A stretch of DNA of 26,093 bases from the IMG/VR virus record IMGVR_UViG_3300004457_000101, positions 1 to 26,093 of that record; one strand, given 5' to 3'. Both the position numbers and the translations under genes were made by a program. The notes beneath the pieces were generated by a model. It searched no databases and had not been told where the DNA came from. It saw only the letters and a list, made by a program, of their open reading frames with translations. This DNA comes from a virus. Positions 3,818 to 17,861 of the stretch are shown in pieces; positions within the stretch are counted from its first letter, which is position 1; the number at the start of each line of letters is the position of its first letter.

Positions 3818-5716
3818 TCAGTTCCTATTTTTATTCTTGCTAAAATCTAACTGCGCACTAACTAGGTTCATGTTGCTGTTAATTATATCCTGATAAAAGC
3901 CTACGAGCAAACTTTCCCCGCTTCTGTTTATATCAACTTTTGCACTTACAACAGTGCGACCATCAGAAAAAACACCTTCATCCAATAATGATACATCTAG
4001 GATAAATCCACTATTAGGATCTGTGAAGTCGAAACTGTAATTATCCACGTCCTGAAGATTAAAATTAACAAAAGCCTTTACAGTTAACGTGTTACTAGAC
4101 GCAGTTGCTCTTAAAATAAGATCTCTAAAATTATAAGTAGTTGCAGAATCTTCGCCGTCTATCCACGACAATAAAGCAAACGCCGGAATGCTTTTAGCCG
4201 CTCCAGAACTATCGTAATCAGATCTATCTTCCTGAATGCTGTGTGAATATAAAAACCCGTTTGCATCACCAAATAAAACTACTTCATTCCCGCTCGCGTC
4301 TTCTGCGCTACAACCACAAGTTGCATTAGAATAAAAGCTGTAAGGCTTAAAGCCAGAGGAGTCTATTTCATAAACATAAGTTTTTCTTAATGTGTTATCA
4401 GATCCTTCGCTAACCCAGGTCATGTATTGATTTAATTGACCATAATATACGCTGAAAAAGTTAGACATGTTAGATTTGTTTAATTCATAAACAAAACCTC
4501 TTGATCTAAAAATATCATCTATGTCGCTAGCTCCTAAAGTTATTGGGTTTTGATTAAGATCTTCGATCATTTTTCCATTAACTATAATTCTCCACCCACT
4601 TTCTGAAAGAAAAACAACGTTTCCGTTTATAACTTGAATAGTATCGTGACTTACACACCCTATTTTTTCAGAAATACAAACGAATTTAGGAGAACTCGCT
4701 CTATTAGAGTAAACGTAGATTTGTCTTTTTTTAAAAATAACTAAATACGGATCAAGTGAAGCATTATTATAAAACCCAGTGCCAAGACCGGTAACATCAC
4801 CGTCGCCTGAAGCATGTAATAATGTTTGTGTAATTGTTTGATCTATCGAATCCGGAGTGCCAAGACCTGCGAAAAATATGTCGTTTTTATATGTAGAATT
4901 TCCAGCATAAACTAATGCTCCACCAAATTCTGCTAAATATTTACCCCCGCCCGCAATAGGAGGAGAGTTAGTTGTAGGAACTATGAACGTACTCGTTGAT
5001 TCGTCTAATATTGTATAGGTTGTTAAACCTATCGCTTGTTCTGTTATAAAATTATATGCGCTGTTTGCGTCTTCATCTCTTAAATAGATTCTAACTTTAT
5101 CTATGAATCCGTTCGCGGCAGTTGCATCAATACCGCTAACATTTATTTTATTACTTCCGGCGCCTGTCGTGACTATAGAACTAGATGCACTCCCATTTGA
5201 TTCAAATCCAAACGAACTAGAGTAAAAAGTTACCTTTACAGTCCATGTTCCATCGGCAAGGCTCCCGCCACCCGCAGCGGCCACAGAAACAGCACTAGGA
5301 GCCGCTTGACCTAAAGCAGTAAATGTTGTGCCATCAAAAGAAAACAATCCGTCAGACTCTATTGCGACAACATGACGATTATTTACAGTTTTTCCTCTAT
5401 GTTTTGTACTAGAAGAAAGCCCTGTTTTTATAGAAGTAGCAACCCCTACGTCGTTCACTGAATATAAAACAGTACCTACTTTTACTAAACGATATCGTAC
5501 ACCAGCGGTTGATTTAAAATAACTTACAGATAAAACAGGCCCACCCAAGGTGTTGGAGTTAAACCTGGAAGATCCGGGTCTTGTCTGTAATGTATTTTGA
5601 AGTGTAAAAACATTGAGTGCATCGACAAGCTTTTCTGGTCTCGCTTCGTAGAGCCTATAACTTACAGGAAAGTTGAAGTTCCTGCTTTTTTTACTTGCTC
5701 TACGAGACAATGACAT
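3818..5716 (-). CDS. Tail nozzle / packaged-DNA stabilisation protein (P22 gp10-like)
   Basis: A 632-residue beta-rich protein. The N-terminus (residues about 17-60) has the pattern 'pvsyrLYEARPEKLVDALNVF..LQTRPG', and residues about 255-300 contain a GGKYLAEFGGALVYAG stretch; both are typical of podoviral nozzle proteins that close the tail channel. Residues about 138-240 form an inserted beta-sandwich also found in the adjacent adaptor protein. The remainder looks like propeller-type repeats. It starts 3 nt after the adaptor gene stop. The assignment rests on pattern, length and position between adaptor and fibre genes. Confidence 0.8.
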   Translation of the reverse strand: MSLSRRASKKSRNFNFPVSYRLYEARPEKLVDALNVFTLQNTLQTRPGSSRFNSNTLGGPVLSVSYFKSTAGVRYRLVKVGTVLYSVNDVGVATSIKTGLSSSTKHRGKTVNNRHVVAIESDGLFSFDGTTFTALGQAAPSAVSVAAAGGGSLADGTWTVKVTFYSSSFGFESNGSASSSIVTTGAGSNKINVSGIDATAANGFIDKVRIYLRDEDANSAYNFITEQAIGLTTYTILDESTSTFIVPTTNSPPIAGGGKYLAEFGGALVYAGNSTYKNDIFFAGLGTPDSIDQTITQTLLHASGDGDVTGLGTGFYNNASLDPYLVIFKKRQIYVYSNRASSPKFVCISEKIGCVSHDTIQVINGNVVFLSESGWRIIVNGKMIEDLNQNPITLGASDIDDIFRSRGFVYELNKSNMSNFFSVYYGQLNQYMTWVSEGSDNTLRKTYVYEIDSSGFKPYSFYSNATCGCSAEDASGNEVVLFGDANGFLYSHSIQEDRSDYDSSGAAKSIPAFALLSWIDGEDSATTYNFRDLILRATASSNTLTVKAFVNFNLQDVDNYSFDFTDPNSGFILDVSLLDEGVFSDGRTVVSAKVDINRSGESLLVGFYQDIINSNMNLVSAQLDFSKNKNRN

Positions 5717-13350: not shown

Positions 13351-13559
13351 TTTTTAAATTGATCATATTCCTCTAAGCTGGCTAACTTGTCAGGATCTCT
13401 AGTCGGGTAATAAGCGCGAGACTTGCCTTTGACTATCTCAATATATCCCTCTTCTTCGTCTGCTTTTTTTTCTAGAACTTCAGCTAGTTTATCGAGATTA
13501 AAATCTGTTGTGTCGTGATTGATCCAGCAATAAAACTTGTTTATTAATTTATTAAAAAT
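13347..13559 (-). CDS. Small ORF with no standard start: AUU start or frameshifted C-terminal extension of terminase
   Basis: The frame from 13559 to 13347 encodes about 70 residues with protein-like composition: a helical 'LDKLAEVLEKKADEEEGYI' region and a tail with 'YPTRDPDKLASLEEYDQF'. It contains no in-frame ATG, GTG or TTG after the terminase overlap; upstream in this frame lies only the antisense-looking reading of terminase. Two routes could express it. First, an AUU at 13559 sits 7 nt after AAGGGG. Second, the terminase frame ends TAT TTT TAA T, and a +1 slip of the UUU codon gives UUU AAU and enters this frame. The AGG before UAU resembles the prfB frameshift site. The product is unknown. 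Confidence 0.5.
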   Translation of the reverse strand: MFNKLINKFYCWINHDTTDFNLDKLAEVLEKKADEEEGYIEIVKGKSRAYYPTRDPDKLASLEEYDQFKN

Positions 13560-14238
13560 AACCTGACCCCTTCTTCCTTTGTTTTTCAAGATACAGCATA
13601 CGATCGATAAGCGAGTTGTGTTTCGGCTTATTGTCTTCTGCGGTCGGCGTAATCGCAGCGAACTTGTTACTATTAGCCTGCTGAATAGCCTGAATTGCAA
13701 TACACGCAGCGACAACACGGTCCTTGCCGTTGAGCTCTACGTTGCCATCTGCTTCTATTGAAAGCGTCATCATTTCTCGTAACAAATCCACATCCTTTAT
13801 TGTGACAGCGTTGTCCCTGTAAGCGGCTACTAAGCCGTTGAGCATCTCCATTTTAGTTTTTACATTAGTTTGCCAACCTAGTTTAGCAGTACGCTTGTTG
13901 CTAGACAGCTCGTCATCAACCATACGTGTGTAAATGTTTAAATATCCTAGCTCTTTTATTTTAAGAAGTGTACTCACACCCATTGCGTTTATTTCGGGAG
14001 CTAGTAACGCTTTATTGTAATACTCGCCAAGCCTAACGGCTATAATGCCCATTCTGTCGGGATCTTCTTTACCGAACCAGCTAGCAACTTGCTCGAGCTT
14101 TTTATTGATAACAAATGCGGTGCTAGCATCACCAGACTCAAGTCCTAAAGACAAGTCCATGCCAATAGCGTATGTCTCGCCTTGCTTGGGTTCTTGGAAA
14201 ATCTTTAAGCGTCCGTCATCTCTAAAATCTAAATGCAT
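13552..14238 (-). CDS. Terminase large subunit, nuclease domain (separate ORF)
   Basis: A 228-residue protein that matches only the C-terminal nuclease half of phage large terminases. Acidic residues expected for the RNase-H-like active site are present: D28 in 'AIGMDLSLG', E82 in 'LAPEINAMG' and D173 in 'NGKDRVVAA'. It cuts concatemeric DNA during packaging. Its ATG lies inside the last 10 nt of the ATPase ORF (ATGCATTTAG), one base out of frame, so re-initiation after the ATPase stop is likely. Terminases are normally one chain of about 450-600 residues. The alternative is a frameshift or a sequence error at the junction. Confidence 0.82.
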   Translation of the reverse strand: MHLDFRDDGRLKIFQEPKQGETYAIGMDLSLGLESGDASTAFVINKKLEQVASWFGKEDPDRMGIIAVRLGEYYNKALLAPEINAMGVSTLLKIKELGYLNIYTRMVDDELSSNKRTAKLGWQTNVKTKMEMLNGLVAAYRDNAVTIKDVDLLREMMTLSIEADGNVELNGKDRVVAACIAIQAIQQANSNKFAAITPTAEDNKPKHNSLIDRMLYLEKQRKKGSGYF

Positions 14239-15251
14239 ATTTCTGCTCTTTTGAATTCTTGTTTCTTACACCTTTCTATATCACTAAGTAGCTTTTCTAC
14301 ATTAAAAAGCGGACGACCTGAGCTGATAAACGCTTCTTCTGCACTAGTAGGGTATTCCTGCTTAAAACTATCATCCGCACTTAGAAACCCCTCGCGCACT
14401 TGTGACCTATCCGCAAGCTTTACACGTCGCCAGAATAGTTTGTCGAACGTAATGTCAGGGAACTTCTCTAATAGCTCCCACTCGTATTTAGTTGGTCTAA
14501 AGTCTTCTGGTGCTTTAAGTTGATAATCGTCGCACTCGAACCAAGGTATAAAAAAAGGAACAAATGCGGATTTGCCGTCAACGGCATCTTTCCATCGCTG
14601 ATAAAACTCCTCGCCCTTGCCTTGCATACCGTTCGCAGTAGACTCGATGATGATACTAGTTTTAGGCTTGTAAGGAACTGACTCGAATAACCCGTTCACG
14701 ACTTCAGCAGCATTAGGCCAGAACGCAAACTCTGTGCATAGTAAGTTGTGAATCGTGCCCGATCGACCTGCGCTGGCATCCATAGCAGTATCTACTTTAA
14801 TTTGTGACATCATACCGGGGTTGGTTCCCCTGTCGTATACGGCGGGGTTCTGAAACACTAATTCCTTGCGGTTACTGCGAGACTTCATTGGCTGGAGTAA
14901 CGGCTCTGATAGGTCGTAATATCTACAACACATATCGAATAAATTTAGAGAACGCTTTTGCTCATCTGCTATGATCAAGCTATCGGTGTAAGGGCTGGTG
15001 ACTGTGCGATTGTAAACGTAGGCTGCGCACACGGTACTAATGCCCATCTGTCGCGCTTTGAGTACGATAATTCTAACAGGCTTATTTTCTTTTTCTAGTT
15101 GTTCGATTAATTCGTAGAGCCTGAGTTGATAGCTGTTTAACTTAAGAGGAACTAATGTCCCCAACTTCGTCTTGATCTTGAGTGTTTTCTTCGCGAACGT
15201 TGGCAAGTGTCTCAATTGTTTCTTCAGAACTTCCCGATAGTGTGCTGCCAT
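14229..15251 (-). CDS. Terminase large subunit, ATPase domain (separate ORF)
   Basis: A 340-residue protein from the ATG at 15251, chosen because GAGG lies about 6 nt upstream; a TTG at 15263 would add four residues. Walker A is ARQMGIST (about 66-73), Walker B is LLCTEFAFW (about 170-178), and the coupling motif is ESTANG (about 203-208). It ends after 'YPTSAEEAFISSGRPLF', the usual end of the ATPase domain, and the nuclease domain follows in another frame. It powers DNA packaging into the head. The first 110 nt overlap the small subunit gene out of frame. Confidence 0.88.
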   Translation of the reverse strand: MAAHYREVLKKQLRHLPTFAKKTLKIKTKLGTLVPLKLNSYQLRLYELIEQLEKENKPVRIIVLKARQMGISTVCAAYVYNRTVTSPYTDSLIIADEQKRSLNLFDMCCRYYDLSEPLLQPMKSRSNRKELVFQNPAVYDRGTNPGMMSQIKVDTAMDASAGRSGTIHNLLCTEFAFWPNAAEVVNGLFESVPYKPKTSIIIESTANGMQGKGEEFYQRWKDAVDGKSAFVPFFIPWFECDDYQLKAPEDFRPTKYEWELLEKFPDITFDKLFWRRVKLADRSQVREGFLSADDSFKQEYPTSAEEAFISSGRPLFNVEKLLSDIERCKKQEFKRAEICI

Positions 15252-15621
15252 TTTTAACCTCAATAACTTCTCGTCTGTCTATATCTAGAAATAGTTCTTC
15301 TAAGGAAAGCGGTTTCATAGCTTCCTTGCTTACATTTAAATTAATATTAGTTTCCTGACCTAGCAAGTGTTTGCCCAAGTGCTTAAGCATGTCAACATTC
15401 CCACGCATAGCTACGTCTATTTGTTTTTTAAGTAGGTTGATTCTGAGCTTTGAGAGCTTAAGATCACGATACTCCCTAAACGTCATACCGAACGTTTCTT
15501 TGATCCTACCTTGCATGGTATCCGGTGATACGTCGCAAGTGTCTGCGCAGTCTAATAGGCTCCCGCCTATCCCTAAAATCGAATCTACAATGTCCCAACT
15601 GAACTCTTTACGTGGTCTCAT
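15142..15621 (-). CDS. terS: Terminase small subunit
   Basis: A 159-residue protein. Residues about 5-55 read as a helix-turn-helix: 'GGSLLDCADTCDVSPDTMQGRIKETFG'-type spacing (seen in two parts, GGSLLDCADTC and VSPDTMQGRI), then 'TFREYRDLK'. Residues about 70-95 have 'AMRGNVDMLKHLGKHLLGQ', a strong hallmark of one phage small-terminase family. The C-terminal 60 residues are acidic and Ser/Glu-rich. It recognises the packaging site and loads the large subunit. It lies just upstream of the ATPase ORF and downstream of the tRNA pair. No good ribosome site is seen before the ATG. Confidence 0.82.
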   Translation of the reverse strand: MRPRKEFSWDIVDSILGIGGSLLDCADTCDVSPDTMQGRIKETFGMTFREYRDLKLSKLRINLLKKQIDVAMRGNVDMLKHLGKHLLGQETNINLNVSKEAMKPLSLEELFLDIDRREVIEVKNGSTLSGSSEETIETLANVREENTQDQDEVGDISSS

Positions 15622-15670
15622 ACCTGACTAAAGTTTACGTCGAATAACTCTAGAAGTCAGCTTTTGTTTT

Positions 15671-15746
15671 TGGAGCGCTACGGTCGGATTTACACCGCCC
15701 TCTCCTGACCGGAAGTCAGGCACAACGTTATCTTTGCTTGTAGCGC
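15671..15746 (-). tRNA. Unusual tRNA-Gly (anticodon UCC) with altered elbow, encoded CCA
   Basis: Read on the minus strand. Acceptor GCGCTAC pairs perfectly with GTAGCGC, then U73 and an encoded CCA. Anticodon stem CCTGA/TCAGG has a 7-nt loop CTTCCGG, anticodon UCC. D stem GCAA/TTGT has an 8-nt loop AGATAACG. G1:C72, C2:G71, G3:C70, U73, C35 and C36 are all present; these are the known identity elements of bacterial GlyRS. Position 8 is A instead of U. The D loop lacks G18G19. The T loop is TGTAAAT instead of TTCAAAT, and the T stem has a bulged A. Staphylococcal tRNA-Gly(UCC) species used for cell-wall synthesis also show changes at 18/19 and 55. It should be charged with glycine but may bind EF-Tu poorly (inference). 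Confidence 0.8.
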
Positions 15747-15752
15747 ATATAT

Positions 15753-15813
15753 TGGTGGAGGAGCTAGGAGTCGCACCTAGATCGTTGTCAATCCCCACTC
15801 TTGGGGCTCCCCC
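15753..15813 (-). tRNA. Mini tRNA-like RNA without anticodon arm, with G3:U70 alanine signal and encoded CCA
   Basis: Minus strand. GGGGGAG (15813-15807) pairs with CTCCTCC (15763-15757), followed by A73 and an encoded CCA. A perfect T arm, CTAGG-TGCGACT-CCTAG, stacks on it. Only 26 nt lie between the 5' acceptor strand and the T arm, instead of about 41: a CCCC-AAGAGT-GGGG hairpin and 12 further nt. No normal anticodon arm fits. The third acceptor pair is G3:U70 and the discriminator is A73, the signals sufficient for alanyl-tRNA synthetase to charge minihelices. The T loop has G55 as in the adjacent tRNA-Gly. The two RNAs are 6 nt apart, so they are probably co-transcribed. Confidence 0.6.
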
Positions 15814-15882
15814 AATAACCCATTGTTGATCTCTTCTAAACGTCTCACTGTTCTTTGGAAATGGTAAGGTGTATTTTTTCAT

Positions 15883-16494
15883 CTAACTTATAATTATTTT
15901 ACATATTGGGTAAAAATAATAGTTTCTAAATGAATCAATAAAACTACCCTCACCATATAACGCAGCGGCTATCTTGTTTATATCCTTTTCGCCTTTTGGT
16001 CCCTTGCCAAACCTTAAGGCGTTTATAATGTTTTTGTATTCTCCAGCCCTAGTAAGGTAAAAATCATTGCACTTTTCTGTGCCTAAAAACATAAACCCTG
16101 AAGCTTGGTATACTATGCCACAATCCTTTTTACACCCACCGCTATACGTCCATATTACTTTTATATCTTTATAGTGACTTTTTATGGCTGCAATTATTAT
16201 TGAAAGAGTTTTACTTTCAGCGTTCTTGCCCAGTTGGTCAGACAACCATAGCCTTTGCATTTCTATTATTTCCGATTTCTTAACGTTGCCCTTAAACAGG
16301 TTTATCTTAGAATCGGTAGAGCTGCTTTTGCCAAACACCGCAACACCTAAAGCCGCCTTACTGTCTTCGTGTGTAATGCCAAAGTAAAGAAAAGCCCCAG
16401 CCGGGAATGTGCGCATGTAGTGGTTTTTTAAAACCATAGCCTTTGCTTGGTCTCTACTTATGGGGATGACTTTTATTTTGTTTATGTCGAGCAC
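15883..16494 (-). CDS. Mom-like DNA modification protein, second copy
   Basis: A 203-residue protein with the layout of Mom-like GNAT-fold enzymes: NHYM at 24-27, a 'FGI' strand near 38, 'EMQRLWL' at 78-84, 'KNAESK' at 90-95, then 'YSGGCKKDCGIVYQASGF' at 117-134. Mom of phage Mu modifies adenine N6 in phage DNA and protects it from restriction. Compared with its upstream paralog, the Asp after the aromatic strand is replaced (YSGG against FADA) and the Arg of ESR is Lys, so its chemistry may differ. It starts inside the last 13 nt of the first copy. Two tRNA-like RNAs follow directly. Family assignment is by motif pattern. Confidence 0.7.
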   Translation of the reverse strand: MLDINKIKVIPISRDQAKAMVLKNHYMRTFPAGAFLYFGITHEDSKAALGVAVFGKSSSTDSKINLFKGNVKKSEIIEMQRLWLSDQLGKNAESKTLSIIIAAIKSHYKDIKVIWTYSGGCKKDCGIVYQASGFMFLGTEKCNDFYLTRAGEYKNIINALRFGKGPKGEKDINKIAAALYGEGSFIDSFRNYYFYPICKIIIS

Positions 16495-17132
16495 TTTTTT
16501 CCCTTATACATTCTAGCGTTTTCTATTTCTATTTCTTTATAATCTAAAACATCGCAGAGTAGCTCTGCTTTTTTATCTAACAACCAGATATATCTTATTT
16601 GATAGCCATCAAGCGGCTGCCAAACATCCTTATTCCCGAAGTCTGTTATCATGTTATGGTATGCTGTCATCTGCTGCAAAACCTCGCCAGTTTTATTATT
16701 TCTTTTTAGTCCAACGTTTTTTTTAATGTTAGTTAAGTAAGCACCAGTGGCTCTATAGATGGTGCCATCGCCACACTGTGTGGCGTCTGCAAAAGTAACA
16801 ATCCATTTTATATTTGGTGCATGTTTTTTTATAAGTCTAAGACAAACAGCTATAGACCTGCTTTCACTGTTTTTAGGCAGGGCATCTAAAAAAACCATCC
16901 TGTTAAGCTCTAGGAAATCATTCCACTTTGTGTCTTTAACTAAGCCCAACATAAACTCTTTACGCATACAGGGACCAAACTGCAAGACGCCAGAGAGTTG
17001 ATTATTAAAGAATACGCCAAAGTGTATTTGGGAGTTTGGTACAACTTTTTTTGAGTAATGGTTTTTTTTAACAAAGCCATTTGCATCTTTTGCGCTTATG
17101 TTTTTTATTAAAAGATTTTTAACGTCTATCAT
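16482..17132 (-). CDS. Mom-like DNA modification protein, first copy
   Basis: A 216-residue protein matching the Mom family: NHYS at 24-27, 'IHFGVF' near 36-41, 'GVLQFGP' near 48-54, ELNRMVFLD at 75-83, 'KNSESR' at 87-92, 'WIVTFADATQCGDGTIYRAT' at 110-129. The pattern (Y/F)AD-x(4)-G-x-G-x-IYxAxG is the core of these proteins. Mu Mom attaches a glycinamide-like (carbamoylmethyl) group to adenine N6; the donor here is not known. Its start overlaps the ParB-like gene by 14 nt and its end overlaps the second copy by 13 nt, so the three are one translated unit. It probably modifies phage DNA to evade restriction. Confidence 0.78.
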   Translation of the reverse strand: MIDVKNLLIKNISAKDANGFVKKNHYSKKVVPNSQIHFGVFFNNQLSGVLQFGPCMRKEFMLGLVKDTKWNDFLELNRMVFLDALPKNSESRSIAVCLRLIKKHAPNIKWIVTFADATQCGDGTIYRATGAYLTNIKKNVGLKRNNKTGEVLQQMTAYHNMITDFGNKDVWQPLDGYQIRYIWLLDKKAELLCDVLDYKEIEIENARMYKGKKCST

Positions 17133-17724
17133 ATGTCAAATAAGTTTCACATATTCTAGCAATGGCGTTGCCGTTTTTGTTAGAGTTTATATCTTCTAAG
17201 TACGATCCTTTTGTAGACGCCAGCGCTAACGCTTTTTCTATCTCTTCTTTTTGATCCTGTGTAATTGTAAATGTAATCTGACAAATTGGACCCTTATCCC
17301 CTGTGGGCATCTCTGGAAACGGCACCTCTTCTGCTAAGTCTAATTTAAAATCTTTCAATCCCAACATTTCCAAATCAAACTCAGGCCCAAGCTCCGCTAA
17401 TTCTAAATTAATCGCGCTTAAATCTAACGTAGCCCATGTGTCTTTTCCTATGGCGTTGTCTGCTACCATATGAGCATAAAGCTGGTCTTGATCTTTAAAT
17501 TCTTGATATATAACCGGAACTTTTTTAAGTCCTAATTTCTTTGCAGCAAGCAGACGACCGTGACCACAAACAATTAAATCAGTCCCTTTTTCTGCTATGA
17601 TCGGAGTCCGAAAGCCTTGGTACTCAATAATCTTAACTAATCTCTCAATTTGTTCTTCACTGTGTACGTGCATGTTCTTTGGATGCGGTGCAAGCTCGTC
17701 TATCGCTATCATTTCTATTTTCAT
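17119..17724 (-). CDS. ParB/Srx-fold protein linked to the Mom-like genes
   Basis: A 201-residue protein. Residues 1-75 form the ParB N-terminal domain: 'IDELAPHPKN' then a helix, 'GFRTPIIAEKGTDLIVCGHGR' in parts, with the nucleotide-binding motif CGHGRLLAAKKLG at 53-65, followed by 'VPVIYQEF'. The middle (about 80-110) has 'AHMVADNAIGKDTW', common in ParB-type proteins fused to or paired with DNA methyltransferases. There is no DNA-partition helix-turn-helix after it, so plasmid-style partition is unlikely. The ParB/Srx fold includes CTPases and kinases. A role with DNA modification is inferred from the overlap with the first Mom-like gene. Confidence 0.78.
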   Translation of the reverse strand: MKIEMIAIDELAPHPKNMHVHSEEQIERLVKIIEYQGFRTPIIAEKGTDLIVCGHGRLLAAKKLGLKKVPVIYQEFKDQDQLYAHMVADNAIGKDTWATLDLSAINLELAELGPEFDLEMLGLKDFKLDLAEEVPFPEMPTGDKGPICQITFTITQDQKEEIEKALALASTKGSYLEDINSNKNGNAIARICETYLTYDRR

Positions 17725-17775
17725 TAAAAACAGGTTCTTATAAGTTCACACAATATGCAAGAATTAGTGAATGGG

Positions 17776-17858
17776 TCGCTGGACTGGGACTCGAACCCAG
17801 GTCTCTCGTGCTAAGCGTCCTTGCTCACGAGCGTAAAATGCCGCTCTACAATCCAGCG
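17776..17858 (-). tRNA. tRNA-like RNA with a 10-nt enlarged anticodon loop
   Basis: Minus strand. Acceptor CGCTGGA/TCCAGCG, A73, then CCC rather than CCA. U8, A14, G15, G18G19 and A21 are present in the D arm (stem GTAG/TTAC). The T arm is perfect and canonical, CTGGG-TTCGAGT-CCCAG. The anticodon arm is not: stem CTCGTG/CACGAG encloses 15 nt, AGCAAGGACGCTTAG, so the loop is 17 nt with a 5-bp stem instead of 7. Inner AGC/GCT pairing would make a longer bulged hairpin. No anticodon can be assigned. It lies in the gap between the phosphoesterase and ParB-like genes. Confidence 0.72.
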
Positions 17859-17861
17859 AAA

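What the first reader, a model, noticed from the sequence alone, without database searches (positions are those of the whole stretch)
15753..15813. 58-nt mini tRNA with G3:U70, A73 and CCA but no anticodon arm
An acceptor stem of 7 pairs with exactly one wobble at 3:70, a perfect 5-7-5 T arm, A73 and CCA are present with only 26 nt between. AlaRS needs just this part of the molecule, so the RNA could be alanylated yet never decode. The T loop G55 is shared with the adjacent tRNA-Gly. Non-decoding mini tRNAs of this kind are not known to me in phages.
Basis: partly seen in the sequence, partly recalled or inferred. Interest (0 to 1): 0.8.

Follow-up and report, generated by a model that had tools for sequence, protein, structure and literature searches.

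The report
Mini-tRNAs paired with DNA-modifying Mom enzymes
Next to genes for Mom, an enzyme that decorates viral DNA with an amino-acid-like group, phages carry stripped-down tRNAs that look built to be loaded with glycine or alanine but not to read codons, suggesting they feed amino acids to the enzyme that marks the DNA.

Summary
The 58-nt mini tRNA is real and conserved. It lies behind the second of two adjacent Mom-like genes (Mom: phage Mu's adenine hypermodification enzyme) and is followed by a deviant tRNA-Gly. In related viruses the first Mom type (my label MomA) carries a Gly-type RNA in 79 of 80 loci. All 30 loci with the second type (MomB) carry a second RNA, and none of the 50 without it do. 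That RNA is usually a 47-74-nt mini tRNA with G3:U70 and A73; one clade has a 60-61-nt form with G73. Of 101 distinct Gly-type RNAs, all keep G1, C2, C35, C36, G71 and C72 and 100 keep U73, nearly the published GlyRS identity set. Sixty-one lack a 7-nt anticodon loop with U33, and all carry an adenine that breaks T-stem pairing. The only Mom product known to me is a glycinamide on adenine. Best explanation: the RNAs are dedicated, non-decoding aminoacyl donors, Gly-RNA for MomA and Ala-RNA for MomB. Charging, transfer and the predicted alanine-bearing base are inferred. Mu and six other distant Mom phages showed no such RNA. I found no description in the papers I could search.

The parts
15753..15813 (-). 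mini tRNA, Ala type: 58 nt plus encoded CCA; G3:U70, A73; arms CCCC/GGGG, GATTG-ACAA-CGATC, T arm with G55
15671..15746 (-). Gly-type RNA plus encoded CCA: GCGCTAC/GTAGCGC, U73, loop CTTCCGG (C35 C36), A18 A19 in place of GG, T loop TGTAAAT (G55 U56), T-stem mismatch GGGCGG/CCGACC
   Evidence: CM R1 15674-15746, 75.4 bits, E 7e-16, not among the seeds; fold
16482..17132 (-). Mom-like protein, first type (labelled MomA here), 216 aa
   Evidence: PHROG 1384 E 2.1e-44; model pLDDT 90.2, VIA-align Z 21.5 to Mu Mom 8bv8
15883..16494 (-). Mom-like protein, second type (labelled MomB here), 203 aa, ended by an in-frame TAG at 15883-15885
   Evidence: PHROG 1384 E 1.7e-29; alignments; tree
15628..15882 (-). 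84-aa open frame directly after that TAG, same frame; its start matches the C-terminal part of MomB in relatives (FRRDQQW), and the frame then runs through both RNAs
17119..17724 (-). ParB-like gene; also precedes Mom in Salinibacter phage B2_17 and Psychrobacter phage Y8A
15142..15621 (-). probable small terminase, by position (no PHROG match); followed by large terminase 14229-15263
   Evidence: compare L002 and L003

Best explanation
The mini tRNA and the tRNA-Gly beside it are dedicated, non-decoding aminoacyl carriers for the two Mom enzymes encoded next to them. Host GlyRS charges the Gly-type RNA through G1-C72, C2-G71, G3-C70, U73, C35 and C36; host AlaRS charges the mini RNA through G3:U70 and A73. 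Features that normally serve translation (U33, a 7-nt anticodon loop, a regular T stem, G18-G19/U55, in the minis the anticodon arm itself) are lost or free to drift, which should keep the charged RNAs off EF-Tu and the ribosome. Mom, a GNAT-fold enzyme with a conserved serine (S124 in Mu), takes the aminoacyl group and places it on N6 of adenine in phage DNA. For glycine, attack of the glycyl amine on C6 with release of the old N6 as an amide would give the known glycinamide base (same mass as N6-glycyl). MomB would make the alanine homologue. Shown here: the RNAs, their conservation, the identity elements, and the tight linkage to Mom. Inferred: charging, EF-Tu exclusion, use by Mom, and the chemistry.
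For: (1) Linkage. CM R1 gives 82 hits at E<=1 in 83 sources (568,746 b), all beside mom: 78 of 80 MomA loci, 79 with L063 from the scan. MomB-associated RNA in 30 of 30 loci with MomB against 0 of 50 without. In a second MomB set, 59 of 62 loci with enough sequence held (many contigs shared with the first set). Reverse search by RNA motif: Ala 13 of 13 and Gly 103 of 114 distinct elements have mom within 600 nt; 6 of the 11 misses have under 240 nt held upstream. (2) What is kept. 101 distinct Gly-type rows: G1, C2, C35, C36, G71, C72 in 101, U73 in 100, G3 in 91. The published bacterial Gly set is U73, G1-C72, C2-G71, G3-C70, C35, C36 (PMC9976931 Table 1, passage). Ala type: 32 of 32 G3:U70, 31 A73. 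(3) What is lost. Only 40 of 101 have a 7-nt loop with U33; position 34 is U70, A25, C6; a mispaired T-stem A in 101 of 101. The anticodon arm is gone or stunted only in RNAs of the AlaRS/SerRS kind, which need no anticodon, and kept in the Gly type, whose synthetase reads C35-C36. (4) Covariation. (5) Independent genes: in 18 loci the RNA lies on the strand opposite to mom, 8 with TAnnTTTG within 35 nt upstream against 1.9% of control windows, most followed by a hairpin plus T-run; in L073 both RNAs are inverted. (6) Mu Mom's product is a glycinamide of adenine (title in the reference list of PMC3874153). (7) The site of the inactivating S124A change of Mu Mom is invariant in 50 of 50 Mom rows of both types.
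Against: No charging, transcript or DNA mass data. Mu and six other distant Mom phages (Elizabethkingia, Enterococcus, Paenibacillus, Porphyromonas, Acinetobacter, Arthrobacter) have no such RNA by R1 or R2; they would have to use host tRNA or another donor. 7 of 28 Mom loci in bacterial genomes and one IMG/VR locus (L018) lack a Gly-type RNA. Three Gly-type RNAs (L224, L237, L256) lie beside DNA methylase genes with no mom held. The window's MomB has an in-frame stop, so its mini RNA may be serving a damaged gene, or the stop is an assembly error. A published view names acyl-CoA such as glycyl-CoA as the donor (PMC7824862, passage). The fold matches shown for MomA below Mu Mom are mainly CoA-dependent GNATs; no aminoacyl-tRNA transferase was among the rows shown.
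Confidence: 0.77

Rival explanations
1. Regulatory or inhibitory RNA: the tRNA-like RNAs bind Mom and hold it in check or sense aminoacylation, because Mom is toxic when expressed out of place, and do not serve as donors.
For: Tight one-to-one linkage of enzyme type and RNA type would fit an antitoxin-like pair; Mom is described as toxic when artificially expressed (PMC12707154, passage).
Against: Does not explain why exactly the GlyRS set is kept in 101 rows while decoding positions drift, why the Ala type keeps 3:70 and A73, or why the amino acid on the known Mom base is glycine.
Confidence: 0.1
2. Ordinary or decaying translation tRNAs: phage tRNA-Gly genes that happened to sit beside mom, with mini forms as deletion remnants.
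For: Phages often carry tRNAs; 40 of 101 Gly-type RNAs have a 7-nt loop with U33; ARAGORN in L001-L083 as tRNA-Gly or unknown.
Against: 61 of 101 lack a normal U33 loop; all carry the mispaired T-stem A; stems of mini forms still covary; 13 of 13 Ala-type elements found by motif alone are at mom.
Confidence: 0.04
3. Processing or stability element of the mom messenger (a tRNA-like 3' end cut by RNase P/Z).
For: In most loci the RNA follows mom on the same strand, and MomB stop codons lie inside the RNA (TAG of ACCAATAG in L008, L017 and others).
Against: In 18 loci the Gly-type RNA lies on the opposite strand, often with its own promoter-like box and terminator; identity elements would be irrelevant.
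Confidence: 0.05
4. Packaging signal or packaging RNA linked to the terminase genes.
For: The Gly-type RNA often lies between mom and the terminase genes.
Against: MomB-type RNAs lie between MomB and MomA and follow MomB presence; L103 and L105 have mom directly before terminase genes and no RNA by R1; in L008 other genes separate RNA and terminase.
Confidence: 0.03

Closest known systems
Phage Mu Mom (PHROG 1384; PDB 8bv8), adenine to N6-glycinamide adenine
   Same: Both window proteins match the family; MomA model superposes on 8bv8 (Z 21.5, 193 residues, rmsd 3.4); serine of the inactive mutant conserved
   Different: Mu encodes a single Mom and no such RNA was found near it; here two Mom types each come with their own RNA type
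Non-proteinogenic tRNA-Gly(UCC) of staphylococci used for pentaglycine bridges
   Same: Charged tRNA-Gly with altered D and T loops and poor EF-Tu recognition, used as amino-acid donor outside translation (PMC8007984, passage)
   Different: Full-length and chromosomal, serves cell-wall enzymes; here phage-borne, beside a DNA-modifying enzyme, often with a non-decoding loop or no D arm
tRNA-Ala minihelix and tmRNA acceptor domain
   Same: G3:U70, A73, acceptor plus T arm; the classic minimal AlaRS substrates (recalled)
   Different: A free-standing natural gene of 47-74 nt with a tiny D-like arm, not engineered and with no mRNA-like part between the halves
GNAT-fold aminoacyl-tRNA transferases (Fem ligases, Leu/Phe-tRNA transferase; recalled)
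   Same: Proposed reaction type: aminoacyl group moved from tRNA to an amine by a GNAT-fold enzyme
   Different: Acceptor would be a DNA base; no match to these was seen in the fold rows shown

Membership tests
Mom family (PHROG 1384) | profile match over most of the protein | tested here: met
   MomA E 2.1e-44, residues 2-213; MomB E 1.7e-29, residues 4-152
Mom family (PHROG 1384) | serine whose change to alanine inactivates Mu Mom (S124) | tested here: met
   MomA S91, MomB S94; 50 of 50 rows; S124A label from 8bv8; numbering offset of 10 inferred
Mom family (PHROG 1384) | makes N6-glycinamide adenine | not testable with these tools
   needs phage DNA and mass spectrometry
Bacterial tRNA-Gly (identity) | G1-C72, C2-G71, G3-C70, U73, C35, C36 | tested here: met
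   window RNA has all; 101 distinct rows: all invariant but U73 (100) and G3 (91); set from PMC9976931 Table 1
Bacterial tRNA-Gly (decoding) | 7-nt anticodon loop with U33; paired T stem | tested here: not met
   as a family: 61 of 101 lack the loop, 101 of 101 have the T-stem mismatch; the window member itself keeps a 7-nt loop with U33 but has the mismatch
Bacterial tRNA-Ala (identity) | G3:U70, A73, G2-C71, G4-C69 | tested here: met
   window; G3:U70 in 32 of 32 and A73 in 31 of 32
Bacterial tRNA-Ala (identity) | G20 in the D loop | tested here: inconclusive
   D-like loop too short to number; AGG kept in the 50-nt class
tRNA-Ser (third RNA type) | G73, C72, G2-C71, R4-Y69, large variable arm | tested here: inconclusive
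   G73 and acceptor pairs fit; the AACC...GGTT-like hairpin could be a variable arm; assignment is a guess
tmRNA | mRNA-like tag reading frame between the tRNA-like halves | tested here: not met
   only 26 nt between acceptor and T arm; ARAGORN and Rfam find no tmRNA
Fem/LFT-type aminoacyl-tRNA transferases | fold match beyond generic GNAT | tested here: inconclusive
   not among rows shown
Fem/LFT-type aminoacyl-tRNA transferases | uses aminoacyl-tRNA as donor | not testable with these tools
   needs biochemistry

The most novel reading that the evidence does not exclude
DNA is hypermodified from charged tRNA. Mom enzymes in general use aminoacyl-tRNA as donor; one clade has evolved private, translation-proof mini tRNAs, one per enzyme, so that phages write at least two amino acids (glycine, alanine, perhaps serine) onto adenine. 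Mu's Mom would do the same with host Gly-tRNA, which would answer the long-open question of where its glycinamide comes from.
Probability: 0.6. Interest if true: 0.97.

Novelty: categorically new. Interest (0 to 1): 0.93.

Why it matters
A link between tRNA charging and DNA base modification would be a new biochemical pathway and would supply the missing donor for Mom, known by its product since 1983. It predicts a new DNA base (an alanine homologue), gives natural AlaRS substrates of about 50 nt, and makes a clean test possible because the RNA and enzyme types are paired in the same genomes. It also means that standard tRNA finders overlook a class of phage RNAs: the paper on Psychrobacter phage vB_PmaS_Y8A reports no tRNA genes, yet two tandem Gly-type RNAs lie between its mom and terminase genes.

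Tried and rejected
Ordinary decoding tRNA: rejected for the family (61 of 101 without a 7-nt loop with U33, T-stem mismatch in all). tmRNA: rejected, no room and no match. Anticodon-nuclease decoy (considered, no test run): the mini has no anticodon loop. TAG recoding to rescue MomB: not supported, since other window genes end in TAG. Packaging RNA: weakened by MomB-type RNAs lying between the two mom genes and by mom-terminase neighbours without RNA (L103, L105).

Led nowhere: TerL and MomB of the window as single-protein queries in viral contigs found no relatives. My first scans were too strict or too loose and the scan placed some elements wrongly (for example L052, L066, L071, L076, L078, L083); the CM search supersedes them. 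The scan imposed G1, C2 and U73, so those three bases of the 26 seeds are partly by selection; C35, C36 and the T-stem A were not imposed. A4 was misaligned by one base and not used. One R2 row (L183) has a wrong 5' boundary. Three weak R1 hits away from mom at E 0.066-0.87 were dropped as noise (L084, L096, L099). The 60 R1 hits were not checked one by one for distance to mom. Fem or Leu/Phe transferases did not appear in the fold rows shown, which is not evidence of absence.

Full report
What was reported and what is there. The 61-nt unit at 15813-15753 on the minus strand is as described: 7-bp acceptor with one wobble at 3:70, 5-7-5 T arm, A73, CCA. It folds with two further small hairpins. 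Six bases downstream lies a tRNA-Gly-like RNA (15746-15671 with CCA) with C35 C36, U73, AA in place of GG18-19, G55 and a mismatched T stem. ARAGORN and Rfam report neither.

Surroundings. Upstream are two Mom-like genes in a row (PHROG 1384, E 2.1e-44 and 1.7e-29), labelled MomA (16482-17132) and MomB (15883-16494) here, preceded by a ParB-like gene; downstream are the terminase genes. Salinibacter phage B2_17 has ParB-Mom-tRNA-Gly-TerS-TerL, its tRNA with G33 instead of U33. Psychrobacter phage Y8A has ParB-Mom-two tandem short Gly-type RNAs-TerS-TerL; its paper says no tRNA genes (PMC10434257, passages).

Survey of MomA. A covariance model from 26 elements found 82 hits in 83 sources at E<=1, all beside mom, and the window RNA, not a seed, at 75.4 bits. 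78 of 80 loci are covered, 79 with L063 from the scan; L018 has none. In bacterial genome contigs 21 of 28 mom loci have one, including Bradyrhizobium, Gallibacterium, Limnohabitans and Larkinella. Seven distant Mom phages including Mu have none.

Survey of MomB. Of the 80 loci, 30 have MomB. 19 of them have an Ala-type mini RNA by model R2 and the other 11 a third type; the 50 without MomB have neither (44 of these 50 have at least 1000 nt held upstream of MomA). Nearly all lie just behind MomB; in L073 both RNAs are inverted behind MomA. In a second set of 65 further MomB loci, partly the same contigs, 44 have the Ala type and 15 the third type; 3 are cut off too early, L145 and L146 have none, and L180 is truncated. 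The window's MomB groups with L179, L182 and L183 (98/94), which show the same order MomB-mini-Gly. The tree separates a Gly side (with Mu, weakly) from an Ala/third-type side; labels need 9 changes against 38.1 in shuffles (83 rows chosen by me from those held).

Reverse test. Searching IMG/VR by RNA motif alone, 13 of 13 distinct Ala-type and 103 of 114 distinct Gly-type elements have mom within 600 nt. Of the 11 misses, 6 lie at the edge of the held sequence, L211 has mom 1.3 kb upstream, L224, L237 and L256 have DNA methylase-like genes (by eye) and no mom held, and L275 is short.

Anatomy. Gly type, 101 distinct rows: G1, C2, C35, C36, G71 and C72 in all, U73 in 100, G3 in 91. Position 34 is U70, A25, C6. 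The anticodon loop has 7 nt in 77, 8 in 23 and 6 in 1; only 40 have a 7-nt loop with U33. A T-stem adenine faces G (87) or A (14) in every row. These kept bases are almost exactly the bacterial glycine identity set in PMC9976931 Table 1 (passages read). Ala type, 32 distinct, 47-74 nt: G3:U70 in 32, A73 in 31, CCA encoded in 10. The third type, 60-61 nt, has G73 and CCA, A3-U70 in most, and an extra AACC...GGTT-like hairpin; it fits a serine acceptor best, but that is a guess. The pattern is telling: the anticodon arm is lost or stunted where the synthetase ignores it (AlaRS, SerRS) and kept with C35 C36 where GlyRS reads them. Pairing is supported by changes on both sides: 17 of 21 pairs in A3, 7 of 15 in A5 (94.2% and 98.8% of cells paired, 0 of 500 shuffles as high; for A5 the count of pairs with changes on both sides was reached by 76 of 500 shuffles).

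Separate genes. In 18 listed loci the Gly-type RNA is on the strand opposite to mom. Eight have TAnnTTTG (Bacteroidota promoter box, recalled) within 35 nt upstream, against 1.9% of 35-nt windows in the same loci, and most are followed by a hairpin and T-run. The loci are related, so these are not 18 independent events.

Enzyme. The MomA model (pLDDT 90.2) matches Mu Mom 8bv8 best (Z 21.5, rmsd 3.4, 193 residues). The serine changed in the inactive Mu Mom mutant is invariant in 50 of 50 rows of both types.

How it most likely works. The known Mom base is a glycinamide of adenine (Swinton 1983, title seen in the reference list of PMC3874153); the RNA beside MomA is a glycine acceptor by its identity set. 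N6-glycyl-adenine and the glycinamide are isomers, and an intramolecular rearrangement would convert one to the other (my inference). So the simplest reading is that Mom takes its amino acid from these RNAs, and that MomB with its Ala RNA makes an alanine homologue. A passage in PMC7824862 names acyl-CoA, such as glycyl-CoA, as donor.

Novelty. Ten searches of open papers gave nothing on Mom with tRNA; listings and passages only were read, and bioRxiv and most subscription papers are outside the library. Non-decoding tRNA-Gly used for cell walls is known (PMC8007984, passage); natural mini tRNAs tied to a DNA-modifying enzyme are not known to me.

Limits. All evidence is comparative. E-values of the models are rough. 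Loci are related. The window's MomB carries an in-frame stop and its TerL a frameshift, so this genome copy may be damaged or misassembled; the inference rests on relatives.

Noticed in passing
window 17772-17859 (-): A further tRNA-like element upstream of the ParB-like gene: 8-bp acceptor, C73, CCA, normal T arm, ARAGORN reports a four-base anticodon 'gagc'. Not assigned.
   Followed up: partly
window 15883-15885: In-frame TAG in MomB; the following 84-aa frame holds the missing C-terminal motif. Other genes of the window use TAG as an ordinary stop.
   Followed up: partly
window 13552-15263: Large terminase split into two overlapping frames (14229-15263 and 13552-14238), a frameshift or assembly error.
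   Followed up: partly
L224 7082-7110, L237 3696-3724, L256 2976-3004 (RNA 3' part): Gly-type RNAs behind DNA methylase-like genes with no mom in the held sequence; perhaps mom lies elsewhere or another enzyme uses the RNA.
   Followed up: partly
L211 9259-11245 (-): A 435-aa gene of unknown kind sits between mom and the Gly-type RNA.
   Followed up: no
L006 1356-1416 and 25 further loci: Third MomB-linked RNA type, 60-61 nt, G73, CCA, with an extra hairpin; amino acid unknown, serine suspected.
   Followed up: partly
L095 near 4700-4790: Behind mom of a Tenericutes MAG lies another tRNA-like 3' end (T arm plus CCA) not matched by R1 or R2.
   Followed up: no
L003 6662-6799; L109 1499-1639: Two Gly-type RNAs in tandem behind one mom gene.
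   Followed up: no
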